A stretch of DNA of 64,000 nucleotides, taken from assembly GCF_900110435.1 (NCBI RefSeq), contig NZ_FODT01000013.1:1-64000 (forward strand). Reading direction: 5' to 3'. A program made the translations under genes and the position numbers. The notes below the pieces were generated by a model. That model made no database searches. It was not told the DNA's origin and worked only from the letters and a program-made list of their open reading frames with translations. The DNA is from Rhodopseudomonas pseudopalustris. GTDB taxonomy: Bacteria; Pseudomonadota; Alphaproteobacteria; Rhizobiales; Xanthobacteraceae. Shown piece by piece: positions 59,856 to 64,000 of this stretch. Within the stretch, counting starts at the first letter, position 1; each line of letters opens with the position of its first letter.

Positions 59856-61910
59856 CTAGAAAGCCAGTTTGAAGCCGCCGCTGACTCCACCGGCGTTGCC
59901 GCCTTGCCGGGCGAAGCTGGTCGTGCCCGTCAGCGTAGCCGTGACATTGGCGGCGACCACCGCCGACACGCCGGCCGCGACTCTGCCATAGGTGCCGCCA
60001 TCGGCCGACACCGGCGTCAGCACCGGCAGCAGCGGCGCCGTCACCAGCGTCGTCGTGACGGTGTGGCTGGAGCCGAGAAAATCATGCGCGGCGGTGAGAT
60101 TGAGGAACGGCGTGTAGACGCCGTTGCCGATCTGAAGCGGGTAACGGATCTGAACGCCAGCGTCGCCGGTGAGTGTGTTGAGGGTCTGCCGGTCCACCAG
60201 CATGGTGAGCAGGATGTCGCCGGTCTCGGTATAGGCCCGGATCGTGGCGTTGGTGTAGTTCAGCCCTGCAATCGGCCCGACCCGGAGCCGGCCGGCATCG
60301 AACAGATAGCCGCCGCGGCCGGCGACCGTGAAGACGTCAGCGCTGGTGTTGGCGCGGATGACGTCGATGATGCCGCGGCGTTCCAACGCGAAATCCTGAC
60401 GACCATAGGCAACGAGGCCGTCGGCAAACCAGTGCGCATCGGTGTAGGAGCCGTAGCCGGCGAACTGGAACGCGTCGATCCGGTTACGCGCATCCTGGAC
60501 CGCAAGTTTGACGTCCGGCTGCGAATAGCCGAACACCCCGCCAACGCGCCAGTTCGAATTGAACTGGTATTCGAGCCCGAGATAGCCGCCCGCTGCGCCG
60601 TAATCATAGCCGGCGGCATAGAACTGCCGGTCGCGATTGCCGCCGGCGTAGCTCGCGGCCCCGAAGACCGACCAGCGATCCGCCGGGTCCGCCAGCGCGA
60701 CGGCCTTACTCGGCATCGCGGCCATCGCGGCATTGACGCCGTAAGGCTGGAAGCGGCGGCTGGCCTCGAGGCGGTCGAACACCGAATTCGAGAAGCCGCC
60801 GAGCAGGCCGGTCGAGATGCCCGCCTGCGGCGCCACCGTGGTCGGCGCGTTGATCTGGTTCGCCATGTAGTTGGCGATCAGCGCCATCGCGGCGCCGGTC
60901 GGATGCACCGAGTTTTCATAGAAGCAGCCCGCGACATTCACCGCGACCGTCACCGGCGTCGAGCCGGTCCCCGGCCCGGCTTCGCACCCAAAAGAGCCCG
61001 CGGGGACACCAGCAAACCCATACATCCCAGGATTGTCGTGGATGCGCTGCTGCAGAATACCGAAATTGAACAGGAAGATGCGTACGCCCGCTTGCGCGAG
61101 CGGCGCCAGCAGCAGCTGGGTCTGCTGGTAGTAGGCGTCAGCCCATGCATCGCGCTGCGGGTCGCTGAAGTTGAATTGGCCGAGGGTCGCCCCCTGTGAG
61201 CCCAGGGTCCGCTCCGGGAACCATTTTGAACTCCCGGTGCCGAGCCATGCGATATTGCGCGCGCCTGCCGCCACCAATTGCTGTACGCCGCCCACGGCGT
61301 TCGAGGCCGACTGCAGCGCCCCCGCAACGATGATCTGGTTCTGGGAGGCGAGGTCACCGTTGCCGACATTGATGCCGGACAGGTCGTTGCCGCCGATCGA
61401 CAGCGCAATCAGATCACGATCAGTAAACCGTATCCCGCTGGCAACGAATTGTTGCAGTTCATAAGGCAGTCCGTAGCTGCTGGACAGGAACGGCATGGTG
61501 TTGGTGTTATTCGTGCGGGCGCCGCCGATCGAAAAATTCGTCAGGCTCGAAAGGCCGTAGATCGATTGCAGCGAGTCGACGAAATTGGTGCTGCCGGTAA
61601 ACCGGCAGCTCGTATAAGTGGGACTTGGACAAGGCCAGAAGTCGTTCGGAGTTAGCGTAAAAGGAAAATACGGGATGCTGACCGTGCCGCTCCCATAGGT
61701 TCCAATCAGGCGATATGCGCCGCCGGGCGCAGCGCCAGTATCGGCGTAGCTGTCACCGAAGCCAAACAGCCTGGCGAACTGAGCCTGCGCCGGAGCCGGC
61801 ATGGCGCCAGAAATCGCCGTCATCAAAGCGCTGGTCAGCAATACAGTCCAAATGCGCGTGAACAAATTCGGCGCACAATTCCCCGCGCCTCCGCTTGAAA
61901 TCCAGGCCAT
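59856..61910 (-). CDS. GDSL esterase autotransporter (EstA/ApeE type)
   Basis: A 684-residue secreted outer-membrane esterase. The signal peptide ends near residue 44 (PAPAQAQ). The GDSL passenger has block I FGFGDSYADTG with the nucleophile Ser, block III IGGNDLSGI and block V SVHPTGAAM with the catalytic Asp/His region. From about residue 400 on comes the autotransporter beta barrel (DRWSVFGAASYAGGNRDRQF, alternating aromatic strands), ending in GGFKLAF with the C-terminal Phe needed for barrel insertion. It hydrolyses lipid or ester substrates at the cell surface. ATG 61910 and GTG 61913 are both possible. Confidence 0.92.
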   Translation of the reverse strand: MAWISSGGAGNCAPNLFTRIWTVLLTSALMTAISGAMPAPAQAQFARLFGFGDSYADTGAAPGGAYRLIGTYGSGTVSIPYFPFTLTPNDFWPCPSPTYTSCRFTGSTNFVDSLQSIYGLSSLTNFSIGGARTNNTNTMPFLSSSYGLPYELQQFVASGIRFTDRDLIALSIGGNDLSGINVGNGDLASQNQIIVAGALQSASNAVGGVQQLVAAGARNIAWLGTGSSKWFPERTLGSQGATLGQFNFSDPQRDAWADAYYQQTQLLLAPLAQAGVRIFLFNFGILQQRIHDNPGMYGFAGVPAGSFGCEAGPGTGSTPVTVAVNVAGCFYENSVHPTGAAMALIANYMANQINAPTTVAPQAGISTGLLGGFSNSVFDRLEASRRFQPYGVNAAMAAMPSKAVALADPADRWSVFGAASYAGGNRDRQFYAAGYDYGAAGGYLGLEYQFNSNWRVGGVFGYSQPDVKLAVQDARNRIDAFQFAGYGSYTDAHWFADGLVAYGRQDFALERRGIIDVIRANTSADVFTVAGRGGYLFDAGRLRVGPIAGLNYTNATIRAYTETGDILLTMLVDRQTLNTLTGDAGVQIRYPLQIGNGVYTPFLNLTAAHDFLGSSHTVTTTLVTAPLLPVLTPVSADGGTYGRVAAGVSAVVAANVTATLTGTTSFARQGGNAGGVSGGFKLAF

Positions 61911-62056
61911 CACGAATCACCCCTTCCCCGCTGATCATGATGGGTGAGGCGATCCGGGGACACGGGCAACTGATGGAAATACGAAACGCACTAGTAATTA
62001 GTCTCGTCGCCAAGGATATCAGGTCGAAACGTTCGATCTCGCGGTATCCGCTTATT

Positions 62057-62590
62057 TCAGCGCGAGATCTCGCGCGCGGAAACGCTGTCGAGCAGCGCCA
62101 GCAGGCCGCGCAGGATCTGGACCGGCGACGGTGGACAACCGGGAATGTGTAGATCGACCGGGATCACCGCAGAGACGCCACCGGTAATCGCGTAACTACC
62201 GGCGAAACAGCCGCCATCTTTCGCGCAATCGCCGGTTGCGACGACCCATTTCGGTCCGGGCACCGCCTCATAGGTGAGGCGCAGCGCCTCGCGCATGTTG
62301 TGCGTCACAGGTCCGGTCACCATCAGCACGTCGGCATGACGCGGCGAGGCCACGAAGCGCAGACCGAACCGCTCGACGTCGTAATAGGCGTTGCTGAGCG
62401 CGTGGATTTCCAGTTCGCAGCCGTTGCAGGAGCCGGCGTCGACCTCGCGGATCGCGAGGCTGCGGCCCAGACGGCGGCGCGCCGTTTCGTTGACCAGCGC
62501 GGCAAGCTCGGCGACACCCGTCTCGTCCGGCGCCGGCGCGGTTTCGGTCAGGGGCTTTGCGAACAGGCTCTCGAACAGCAGCTTGCGCAT
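62057..62590 (-). CDS. Small (NuoB/HycG-like) iron-sulfur subunit of a group-4-hydrogenase-type complex
   Basis: A 177-residue subunit. The cluster ligands are VDAGSCNGCELEIHALSNAY (C-x2-C as in HycG/HyfI, not the C-C of NuoB), VATGDCAKDGG and IPGCPPSPVQILRGLLALL. It should hold the proximal [4Fe-4S] cluster that faces the large subunit. It follows the large-subunit gene by two bases. ATG 62590 (MRKLLFESLF) is chosen; the frame is open further up only inside the neighbour. It is the last gene of a leftward operon that continues past the window. Confidence 0.9.
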   Translation of the reverse strand: MRKLLFESLFAKPLTETAPAPDETGVAELAALVNETARRRLGRSLAIREVDAGSCNGCELEIHALSNAYYDVERFGLRFVASPRHADVLMVTGPVTHNMREALRLTYEAVPGPKWVVATGDCAKDGGCFAGSYAITGGVSAVIPVDLHIPGCPPSPVQILRGLLALLDSVSAREISR

Positions 62591-62592
62591 CG

Positions 62593-63999
62593 CTACAGAT
62601 CCACGCCGGAATAAGAGCAGTTGAACGATTTGTTGCACAGCGGGAAGTCGGCGATGATATTGCCCTCGATCACGGCTTCCAGCAGCGGCCATTGAAACCA
62701 GGACGGATCGCGCAGGTGGCAGCGCTCGACCACGCCGTCACGCAATCGCAGCCACACCAGAATGTCGCCGCGAAAACCCTCGACCAGCGCCAGGCCCTCG
62801 CAGACCTGCTCCGGCAGCGCCGGGGCGACGCAAATATCGCCGCCCGGCAGGCGATCGAGAATCTGGTCGACCAACGCGAGGCTCTGCTCGACCTCGCTGA
62901 TGCGAATCCAGATGCGCGCGTCGACGTCGCCCTCGGTCCGCACCGGGATTTCGAAGCGCAACTCGTCATAAGGGGCGTAGCCGAGCGTGCGCCTTGCATC
63001 GAAAGCGCGACCGGAGGCGCGGCCGACAAAGCCGCCGGCGGCGTACTGATCGGCCAGCGACGCCTTGAGAATCCCGGTCCCGACGGTGCGGTCCTGCAGC
63101 GACGCCGTGCGGTCGTAGAGTTCGATCAGTTCCGGCAGCTTGTTGCGCACGACGGCCAGCGCTTTGCGGATCGCTGCCGTTCCGGTCGCGTCGAGATCGC
63201 GCGTCACGCCGCCCAGCGTCACCACGTCGCGCATCAGGCGATGGCCGAAGGCGGCGTCCGCGGCGCGCAGCACGTTTTCGCGCAGCACGCCGAACTGGGC
63301 CAGCATGAGCGCGAACGCCGCGTCGTTGCAGATCGCGCCGATGTCGCCGAGATGATTGGCGAGGCGTTCGAGTTCGGCAACGAGCGCGCGTAGCCACACC
63401 GCGCGCGCCGGCACCGCAATCTCGGCCGCGGCCTCGACGGCGCGCGCAAACGCCAGCGCATAGGCCACCGTGCTGTCGCCGGAGACGCGGCCGGCGAGCC
63501 GCGCGGCGCGCGACAATTCCGCGCCGGCGAGCAGCCCGTCGATGCCCTTGTGCACATAGCCGAGCCGCTGCTCCAGCCGCACCACGGTCTCGCCGGAGAC
63601 GGTGAACCGGAAATGGCCGGGCTCGATGATGCCGGCATGGACCGGGCCGACCGCGACCTGATGCGCGCCCTCGCCTTCGACTGGCAGGAAGCGATAGGAC
63701 GGCGACGGCGCCAGGAATTCGACAGGCTCACCGAGCGGCGCGTGCACGCCCCATTGGCCGTGATCCAGCCAGGGCCGGTCGTCAATCGCGCCCTCAGGGA
63801 CGAGCCCGTAGAGATCGCGAATGGTGCGCTCGAGCCGCAACGCCGGCAGATGCTTGGCTGCGACCGAGGGGAAACTGCGATGCGGGCAGTCGAGGCTGAC
63901 GATTCCGATCTCGGCGGTGCGAGGATCGAACAGCGCCATGTGCACCATCGCCGGCTCCCCCCACAGCGAGAGCAACTGCCACTGCTGCTCGCTCAGCAT
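62593..63999 (-). CDS. Large (NuoC/D-HyfG-like) subunit of an Ehr-type complex, possibly 5'-truncated
   Basis: At least 468 residues; the window ends at an ATG that may be internal. The N-terminal part is NuoC-like (RTIRDLYGLVPEGAIDDRPW), followed by NuoD/NiFe-type sequence (VGPVHAGIIEPGHFRF, RLGYVHKGIDGLL, RLANHLGDIGAICNDAAF). The first nickel motif, R-x-C-G-x-C in hydrogenases, reads RVSGDS here. At the C-terminal site, D-P-C-x2-C, it reads FNCSYS. Three of four nickel ligands are thus serine, as expected for energy-converting-hydrogenase-related (Ehr) complexes that lack a NiFe centre. It probably belongs to a membrane ion-pumping complex. Confidence 0.85.
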   Translation of the reverse strand: MLSEQQWQLLSLWGEPAMVHMALFDPRTAEIGIVSLDCPHRSFPSVAAKHLPALRLERTIRDLYGLVPEGAIDDRPWLDHGQWGVHAPLGEPVEFLAPSPSYRFLPVEGEGAHQVAVGPVHAGIIEPGHFRFTVSGETVVRLEQRLGYVHKGIDGLLAGAELSRAARLAGRVSGDSTVAYALAFARAVEAAAEIAVPARAVWLRALVAELERLANHLGDIGAICNDAAFALMLAQFGVLRENVLRAADAAFGHRLMRDVVTLGGVTRDLDATGTAAIRKALAVVRNKLPELIELYDRTASLQDRTVGTGILKASLADQYAAGGFVGRASGRAFDARRTLGYAPYDELRFEIPVRTEGDVDARIWIRISEVEQSLALVDQILDRLPGGDICVAPALPEQVCEGLALVEGFRGDILVWLRLRDGVVERCHLRDPSWFQWPLLEAVIEGNIIADFPLCNKSFNCSYSGVDL

Positions 64000-64000
64000 C

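What the first reader, a model, noticed from the sequence alone, without database searches (positions are those of the whole stretch)
62593..63999. Group-4-hydrogenase-like large subunit lacking the NiFe ligands
The first ligand motif reads RVSGDS instead of R-V-C-G-x-C, and the C-terminal site reads FNCSYS instead of D-P-C-x2-C, while the small subunit keeps all cluster cysteines. Such Ehr complexes are thought to pump ions using an unknown electron donor or acceptor. One cysteine is retained at the C-terminal site, which may be informative.
Basis: partly seen in the sequence, partly recalled or inferred. Interest (0 to 1): 0.7.

Follow-up and report, generated by a model that had tools for sequence, protein, structure and literature searches.

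The report
Hyq complex without nickel-iron ligands
A bacterium related to Rhodopseudomonas carries a six-part, complex-I-like membrane machine whose hydrogenase-like subunit has lost every residue that would hold the nickel-iron site; that loss is already in print, but gene-deletion work on a relative still credits the machine with handling hydrogen, so what it really does is an open question that can be tested.

Summary
The gene is the large subunit of a complete six-gene operon, hyqBCEFGI; hyqG runs past the window edge (62593-64104, 503 aa). RVSGDS aligns with RVCGIC and SFNCSYSGVDL with SLDPCYSCTDR of E. coli HycE, so all four NiFe ligands are lost (Ser, Ser, Ser, Gly). The "retained" cysteine aligns with the proline, not a ligand, and is Cys in 41 of 53 relatives. 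The small subunit keeps all four cluster cysteines. No ferredoxin subunit or hydrogenase peptidase is encoded nearby.

It is an Ehr-type complex, precisely an orthologue of Azorhizobium Hyq. The CxxC loss, Rhodopseudomonas included, was reported in 2012 (PMC3357923), yet the same group's deletion genetics credits Hyq with H2 uptake and evolution.

New here: 26 of 47 good-quality Hyq-bearing genomes lack HypD, which NiFe-site assembly needs, and 35 of 47 lack nifD. So Hyq is in general neither a NiFe enzyme nor a nitrogenase partner. Two complex-I quinone residues are replaced; ion-path lysines are kept.

Best reading: a NiFe-free, redox-driven ion pump with an unknown substrate. A true nickel-free hydrogenase is unlikely but not excluded.

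The parts
62593..64000 (-). hyqG (hyfG-like, NuoC-D-like large subunit), part inside the window; the gene continues to contig position 64104, 503 aa in all
   Evidence: ORF and start codon; PF00346; HycE alignment
62057..62590 (-). hyqI (NuoB-like small subunit, 177 aa), two bases after the hyqG stop
   Evidence: PF01058
63472..63489 (-). RVSGDS (residues 206-211) at the place of RVCGIC: Ser208 and Ser211 at the two N-terminal ligand positions
   Evidence: conservation
62596..62628 (-). SFNCSYSGVDL (residues 493-503) at the place of SLDPCYSCTDR: Ser497 and Gly500 at the two C-terminal ligand positions; Cys496 at the place of Pro; no C-terminal peptide
62417..62428 (-). HyqI C55-x-x-C58, cluster ligands
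62225..62227 (-). HyqI C122, cluster ligand
62135..62137 (-). HyqI C152, cluster ligand
63322..63330 (-). HyqG Cys259-Asn-Asp261: one of the three cysteines of the published HyqG alignment, and the residue aligned with Nqo4 Asp139

Best explanation
The window holds the last two genes of a hyqBCEFGI operon. The complex has a complex-I-type membrane arm: HyqB and HyqF (antiporter-like), HyqC (NuoH-like) and HyqE. On it sit HyqG (NuoC-D-like) and HyqI (NuoB-like, one [4Fe-4S] cluster). The NiFe pocket has been rebuilt into a conserved polar pocket (S-G-D and K-S-x-N-x-x-Y-x-G-x-D). Most likely it is a NiFe-free, redox-driven ion pump: a soluble one-electron carrier docks directly at HyqI, where relatives bind a ferredoxin subunit; a small molecule other than H2, bound in the rebuilt pocket, is reduced or oxidised; and the change is passed through HyqC to the Lys/Glu chain of HyqF and HyqB, moving ions, possibly in either direction. 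Shown here by sequence: operon content, ligand loss, cluster cysteines, ion-path residues, no electron-input subunits nearby, occurrence without HypD. Inferred: that electrons pass through HyqI, that the pocket binds a substrate, and that ions are moved. On this reading the published H2 phenotypes of Azorhizobium hyq mutants are indirect.
For: Ligand loss in 53 of 53 sequences. 26 of 47 Hyq-bearing genomes at least 90% complete and at most 5% contaminated lack HypD at E 1e-20, among them the single-contig genomes G287, G217 and G139. D210, S468, D486, K492, S493, N495, G500 and D502 are invariant in 53 of 53. Ion-path residues kept: HyqB E142 90/91, K222 91/92, K253 82/92, K351 94/95; HyqF E135 95/96, K224 95/97, K343 98/99; HyqC E193 90/90. 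Cluster cysteines kept in 10 of 10 rows. Contiguous B-C-E-F-G-I in 70 of 88 loci. HycB, HycF, HycH and HycI homologues in 0 of 88 loci, against 3, 3, 3 and 2 of 3 formate-hydrogenlyase control loci. dN/dS 0.10-0.22.
Against: Published genetics credits the orthologous complex with H2 chemistry. In nodules H2 evolved was 0.30 (wild type), 0.32 (hup deletion), 0.36 (hyq deletion) and 27.0 (both) umol per g per h (PMC2930871). In culture, hyq deletion raises H2 loss at 20 uM O2 and lowers H2 output below 1 uM O2 (PMC3357923). No electron donor or substrate was found: outside the operon only an HTH gene recurs widely, in 40 of 103 loci and not here. Two complex-I quinone residues are replaced (His38 to Ile160, Tyr87 to Gly209), so quinone as partner is doubtful, although Asp139 is kept as D261.
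Confidence: 0.5

Rival explanations
1. Hyq is a redox-gated or ligand-gated cation/proton antiporter: the HyqG-HyqI part is a sensor, with no net electron transfer.
For: No electron-input subunit in 0 of 88 loci, no conserved redox neighbour, no NiFe ligands, no His38/Tyr87, while ion-path residues are kept.
Against: All four HyqI cluster cysteines are kept and the pocket is strongly conserved, which a mere gate may not need. Does not explain the published H2 phenotypes directly.
Confidence: 0.2
2. Hyq is a real, nickel-free, Hyp-independent H2:acceptor oxidoreductase, as the Azorhizobium genetics reads at face value.
For: Single and double deletions of hup and hyq (PMC2930871, PMC3357923). 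PMC2930871 states, data not presented, that Rhodocista without hup/hyp recycles H2, and that Azorhizobium lacking the whole hup/hyp operon does so too. HypD is absent in 26 of 47 good-quality Hyq genomes, so whatever Hyq does needs no Hyp.
Against: No known H2-activating metal site can be built from the residues present; the three cysteines put forward in 2012 occur together in only 26 of 53 sequences. One group, no cell-free assay, no complementation seen in the parts read. The nodule ratio of H2 to acetylene reduction in the double mutant, 27 to 25, is about four times the 0.25 expected for obligate H2 release (my arithmetic). 35 of 47 good-quality Hyq genomes lack nifD.
Confidence: 0.15
3. 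Hyq reduces ferredoxin or flavodoxin from a membrane donor at the cost of the proton gradient and so feeds nitrogenase and other reductases; the H2 phenotype is a by-product.
For: hyq deletion slows diazotrophic growth by 21% and not growth on ammonium (PMC2650096), and nodule acetylene reduction falls from 31-33 to 25 (PMC2930871). No NuoI-like wire, so a carrier would have to dock at HyqI.
Against: Quinone residues replaced. nifD is absent in 35 of 47 good-quality genomes. It does not explain H2 output in a nifK mutant below 1 uM O2 (PMC3357923).
Confidence: 0.1
4. A cryptic NiFe hydrogenase with other ligands.
For: Group-4 fold, closest to HycE; the window genome has HypD.
Against: Ser/Ser/Ser/Gly at the ligand positions, no C-terminal peptide, no HycI, HypD absent in 26 of 47 good-quality genomes.
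Confidence: 0.02
5. A decaying relic of a hydrogenase.
For: Patchy: 10 of 16 genomes of the genus.
Against: Open frames, dN/dS 0.10-0.22, 48 invariant columns in 53 sequences, operon order kept.
Confidence: 0.03

Closest known systems
Hyq endo-hydrogenase of Azorhizobium caulinodans (hyqRBCEFGI, AZC_4361-4355)
   Same: Same six structural genes in the same order; HyqG of about 504 aa without either CxxC and with cysteines at the same three places; HyqI cysteines 55, 58 and 152. Carriers named there include Rhodopseudomonas palustris BisB5 (Table 2 of PMC2930871) and BisA53, HaA2, BisB18 and BisB5 (legend of figure S7 of PMC3357923).
   Different: hyqR not found here. No NifA-box plus sigma-54 arrangement found upstream here. 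No H2 phenotype known for this organism. PMC3357923 prints the third HyqI cysteine as 112; here it is 122. The Azorhizobium sequence itself was not compared.
[quoted passage not shown] Geobacter sulfurreducens, Sulfobacillus, comammox Nitrospira
   Same: Group-4-like large subunit without the NiFe cysteines, complex-I-like membrane subunits, function unknown (PMC4378227, PMC10284858, PMC6349859, PMC7304191, PMC7894505; passages read)
   Different: Some Ehr clusters are discussed with formate dehydrogenase and NuoE/F-like partners (PMC6349859); none here. The Geobacter and Nitrospira sequences were not compared.
E. coli formate hydrogenlyase / hydrogenase-4 (Hyc, Hyf)
   Different: No NiFe ligands; no HyfA, HyfD or HyfH, no HycH or HycI, no C-terminal peptide
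Respiratory complex I
   Same: Same superfamily and fold; D261 at the place of Nqo4 Asp139; NuoB-type cluster
   Different: The operon has no NuoE, F, G or I genes; Nqo4 His38 and Tyr87 replaced by Ile and Gly

Membership tests
Hyq (Azorhizobium-type operon) | Contiguous hyqB-C-E-F-G-I | tested here: met
Hyq (Azorhizobium-type operon) | HyqG without either CxxC, with Cys at about 258, 491 and 497 | tested here: met
   Cys259, Cys490, Cys496
Hyq (Azorhizobium-type operon) | hyqR regulator gene upstream | tested here: not met
   No match in L005 (18 kb around the operon) to three HyqR-like queries; also none in R. palustris L027; present in 40 of 103 loci. Not treated as essential: the BisB5 entry in PMC2930871 spans six tags
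Hyq (Azorhizobium-type operon) | NifA-dependent expression | tested here: inconclusive
   One NifA-like box at -384 and no sigma-54 site in the 460 bases upstream; over 82 upstream regions NifA boxes in 8, shuffled mean 7.85
Hyq (Azorhizobium-type operon) | H2 uptake or evolution in vivo | not testable with these tools
   Published for Azorhizobium only, as far as seen
Ehr complexes | Group-4-like large subunit lacking the NiFe cysteines, with complex-I-like membrane subunits | tested here: met
[NiFe] hydrogenase group 4 | N-terminal RxCGxC | tested here: not met
   RVSGDS
[NiFe] hydrogenase group 4 | C-terminal DPCxxC | tested here: not met
   FNCSYSG
[NiFe] hydrogenase group 4 | Hyp maturation proteins in the genome | tested here: met
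   HypD on C12 of the window genome, on another contig; but 26 of 47 good-quality Hyq genomes lack it
Formate hydrogenlyase | HycB/HyfA and HycF/HyfH ferredoxin subunits, FdhF | tested here: not met
   Not in the window's locus; ferredoxin subunits in 0 of 88 loci; FdhF one weak match, L057, E 1.6e-6
Complex I | Quinone residues His38 and Tyr87 of NuoD (Nqo4 numbers; their role is recalled) | tested here: not met
   Ile160 (Ile in 52 of 53) and Gly209 (Gly in 51 of 53)

The most novel reading that the evidence does not exclude
Hyq is a fourth kind of hydrogenase: a complex-I-like, ion-translocating complex that oxidises and makes H2 with no nickel, no Hyp maturation and no cysteine pairs, using the rebuilt S-G-D / K-S-x-N pocket and, in part of the alphaproteobacterial branch, a three-cysteine site. 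It is spread over Alpha-, Beta- and other Pseudomonadota, most of the sampled carriers having no nifD.
Probability: 0.12. Interest if true: 0.95.

Novelty: new member of a known kind. Interest (0 to 1): 0.45.

Why it matters
Two literatures describe one machine and, in what I could search, do not cite each other's conclusion: genome papers call such complexes Ehr, unable to handle H2 and of unknown function, while deletion genetics in Azorhizobium calls the same operon a bidirectional hydrogenase. The sequence leaves no room for a NiFe site, and the genome counts show it lives happily without HypD and without nitrogenase. Either the H2 phenotypes have another cause, which corrects a claim about hydrogen recycling in nodules, or there is a nickel-free hydrogenase in common soil bacteria. 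A clean test needs only gene removals in strains already in use.

Tried and rejected
Considered and rejected: a corrected alignment with intact CxxC motifs (none); frameshift or decay (open frames, dN/dS 0.10-0.22); a formate hydrogenlyase with its ferredoxins encoded nearby (its HyfD query cannot judge HyfD, as it matches the other antiporter-like subunits in 88 of 91 loci; gene order does); a conserved redox partner gene beside the operon (clustering of ORFs in 88 loci gave the six genes, an HTH gene and an antisense shadow ORF; every further family was in 10 loci or fewer); general NifA control (0 of 82 with box plus sigma-54 in order).

Led nowhere: paper searches on Ehr with rhizobia or hyf names listed no paper, by what I saw of the lists, that ties this operon to Ehr; the Ehr papers came and the Hyq papers by chance. 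Searches for follow-up work gave only three papers on Hyq, all of one group (3 papers; 71 papers hold a term, 15 listed, the other 12 unrelated by title). Only open-licence papers are held, so follow-up elsewhere is not excluded. A recalled lead, the low-oxygen locus of Burkholderia, was not pursued. Model coordinates are not open to scripts, so the distances between Cys259, Cys490 and Cys496 were not measured.

Faults and limits. The first tree held a wrong-frame row for the genome's own NuoD; rebuilt it with that row corrected and 8 of 58 rows left out. One search used a wrong reference and is void. The 53-row set used instead is the window, 8 plasmid loci (of 233 plasmid records with a match) and 44 of the 61 other genomes matched at E 1e-160 or better: the best 29, and 15 that I picked from the rest. 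In one search, where a subunit is cut off, the best match may be its paralogue. 32 of the 88 context loci are 15 kb or shorter, so absence of neighbours is weaker there. L049 was left out as a duplicate of L015. G144, a partial match at a contig end, is not counted among the 62. The count of 62 and the handle lists were taken by eye. Only Mo-nitrogenase NifD was sought. The 18 Hyq-free comparison genomes were picked by me.

Full report
What is there. The window is G000:C19:1-64000 of a 5.27 Mb draft genome of 28 contigs. The nearest named orthologue is from Rhodopseudomonas palustris (80% identity), so the organism is probably of that genus (inferred). The finding is the large subunit of a group-4-like complex on the minus strand. 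Beyond the right edge the operon continues with hyqF, hyqE, hyqC and hyqB. HyqI is 177 aa (62057-62590). NCBIfam places HyqB and HyqF in its hydrogenase-4 subunit B and F models (911 and 925 bits, over the cut-offs of 667 and 533). The best NCBIfam and Pfam matches of HyqG and HyqI are the general NuoD and NuoB families.

Ligands. In the alignment with E. coli HycE (7z0s_E) and with formate-hydrogenlyase large subunits, RVSGDS stands at RVCGIC and SFNCSYSGVDL at SLDPCYSCTDR. All four NiFe ligands are gone: Ser208, Ser211, Ser497, Gly500. In 53 sequences gathered without using the motif (window, 8 plasmid loci, 44 loci found by profile) the four positions read SSSG in 38 and never hold more than one Cys. 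Gly500 is invariant; Cys496 is Cys in 41, Leu in 10, Pro in 1 and Ala in 1; no cysteine of the window's HyqG is invariant. The protein ends at GVDL. None of the 45 sequences of L107-L151 (L107 is the window itself) has the C-terminal extension that the large subunits of L154-L156 have. HyqI keeps Cys55, 58, 122 and 152, invariant in 10 of 10 aligned rows.

Membrane arm. The Lys and Glu residues known from complex I and Mrp (roles recalled) are kept: HyqB E142 in 90 of 91, K222 in 91 of 92, K253 in 82 of 92, K351 in 94 of 95 aligned loci; HyqF E135 in 95 of 96, K224 in 95 of 97, K343 in 98 of 99; HyqC E193 in 90 of 90. Two of six formate-hydrogenlyase controls (L021, L155) lack the K222-type lysine, so this is not automatic. 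By contrast His38 and Tyr87 of Thermus Nqo4 (roles recalled) align with Ile160 (Ile in 52 of 53) and Gly209 (Gly in 51 of 53); Asp139 aligns with Asp261 (Asp in 52 of 53). At these two residues this goes against the statement in PMC3357923 that the quinone-site elements are conserved.

No electron input. Among 88 loci, contiguous B-C-E-F-G-I is seen in 70 (68, the window, and Variovorax L019, which has one more I-like stretch). Of the other 18, 16 lie at contig ends; L098 lacks a detected B, and Rhodococcus L020 has I first and no detected E. HycB, HycF, HycH and HycI homologues are in 0 of 88; FdhF gives one weak match (L057, E 1.6e-6). Three formate-hydrogenlyase control loci give 3, 3, 3 and 2 of 3. 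Outside the operon only an HTH gene (like the published hyqR) recurs widely, in 40 of 103 loci, and it is absent in the window's locus and in L027.

Spread. 62 of 398 Pseudomonadota genomes have a match at E 1e-160 or better. A separate group follows at 1.6e-97 to 9e-88, of which three were fetched and are formate-hydrogenlyase loci, then three genomes at 8e-65 to 2e-62, then matches of 5.7e-54 and weaker, taken to be NuoD and not checked one by one. In the genus of the window 10 of 16 genomes have it, one of them split over two contigs. In a tree of 50 rows the window pairs with R. palustris L027 (100/99). 37 of the 38 Hyq rows, with the two divergent rows L152 and L153, form one side of a branch (100/99); Rhodococcus L020, Caballeronia L022, formate hydrogenlyases and complex I are on the other. 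Long branches make the places of L022 and L152/L153 unsure.

What is already known. The set is the Hyq complex of Azorhizobium caulinodans. PMC2650096 (text parts 1-3 of 5 read) describes the seven-gene hyqRBCEFGI operon, NifA-dependent induction and 21% slower diazotrophic growth of the deletion mutant. PMC2930871 (passages and section 6 read) reports H2 evolution of nodules of 0.30, 0.32, 0.36 and 27.0 for wild type, hup, hyq and double deletions, lists R. palustris BisB5 as a carrier, and states that strains lacking hup/hyp still recycle H2 (for Rhodocista: data not presented). PMC3357923 (text parts 1-4 of 5 read) reports Hyq-dependent H2 uptake at 20 uM O2 and H2 evolution below 1 uM. It states that HyqG from eight genera lacks both CxxC motifs, gives three completely conserved cysteines, calls a NiFe site uncertain if not unlikely, and says a cell-free assay is not at hand. 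Its figure S7 legend names four R. palustris strains. Genome papers use the name Ehr for complexes without the NiFe cysteines and call the function unknown or doubt H2 chemistry (PMC4378227, PMC10284858, PMC6349859, PMC7304191; PMC7894505 for Geobacter, which does propose a link to H2 from formate; passages read). Marreiros 2013 and Coppi 2005 are cited there and were not read.

New tests. If Hyq held a NiFe site it would need Hyp proteins (established knowledge). HypD is found in 23 of 62 Hyq genomes, and in 21 of the 47 that are at least 90% complete and at most 5% contaminated; 26 of 47 lack it, three single-contig genomes among them. So Hyq is in general not a NiFe enzyme. If its role were recycling nitrogenase H2 it should go with nif: nifD is found in 12 of 62, all 12 in the good set of 47. 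PMC2930871 and PMC3357923 tied hyq to N2-fixing microaerophiles on far fewer genomes. In 18 Hyq-free comparison genomes, picked by me, HypD is in 7 and nifD in 2. The three cysteines are all present in 26 of 53, so they cannot be the general site. No NifA box plus sigma-54 arrangement was found in 82 upstream regions; NifA boxes occur in 8, shuffled mean 7.85. The window genome itself resembles Azorhizobium: nifD at C12:91786, and HypD and two NiFe-hydrogenase-type large subunits on C12.

Judgement. Sequence and genome counts exclude a NiFe hydrogenase with good confidence. They do not exclude a nickel-free one, and the published double-deletion result is hard to explain otherwise. But it comes from one group, has no cell-free assay, and gives an H2 to acetylene ratio of 27 to 25 in nodules where about 0.25 is expected for obligate H2 release (my arithmetic). 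I take a NiFe-free redox-driven ion pump with an unknown substrate as most likely (0.5), then a redox-gated antiporter (0.2), then a nickel-free hydrogenase (0.15), then a ferredoxin-reducing pump run backwards (0.1).

Noticed in passing
L152 (7375-9488, minus) and L153, unnamed Alphaproteobacteria of one genus (G039, G295; one search also lists G363): A very divergent Hyq-like operon: HyqG about 28% identical; in L152 the S-G-D motif is absent, the TM7 lysine of HyqB looks lost, yet the small subunit keeps its cysteines.
   Followed up: partly
L022, 5474-12885 (Caballeronia sp. SBC1 plasmid): A different Ehr-type operon in which the NuoB-like small subunit is fused to a two-cluster ferredoxin domain and the HyqB-like gene comes last; an Ehr with an electron-input domain, in contrast to the window's type.
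   Followed up: partly
L017, 1-4273 (Methylovirgula sp. HY1 plasmid pHY1): A divergently transcribed F-type ATP synthase operon, with AtpZ/AtpI and subunit I genes, lies next to hyq.
   Followed up: no
G000 contigs C6 and C12: The genome has two complex I large-subunit genes: one NuoD-type in a 434-aa frame (C6) and one fused NuoC-D within a nuo gene set (C12).
   Followed up: no
plasmid records, e.g. L014, L015 and hits H21, H25: Public annotation calls HyqG NADH-quinone oxidoreductase subunit C, nickel-dependent hydrogenase large subunit, or hydrogenase expression protein HypE.
   Followed up: no
window 59856-61913, minus: A 685-aa ORF that reads like a GDSL-type esterase with an autotransporter domain lies just downstream of hyqI; no link to hyq was seen (name from reading the sequence only).
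   Followed up: no
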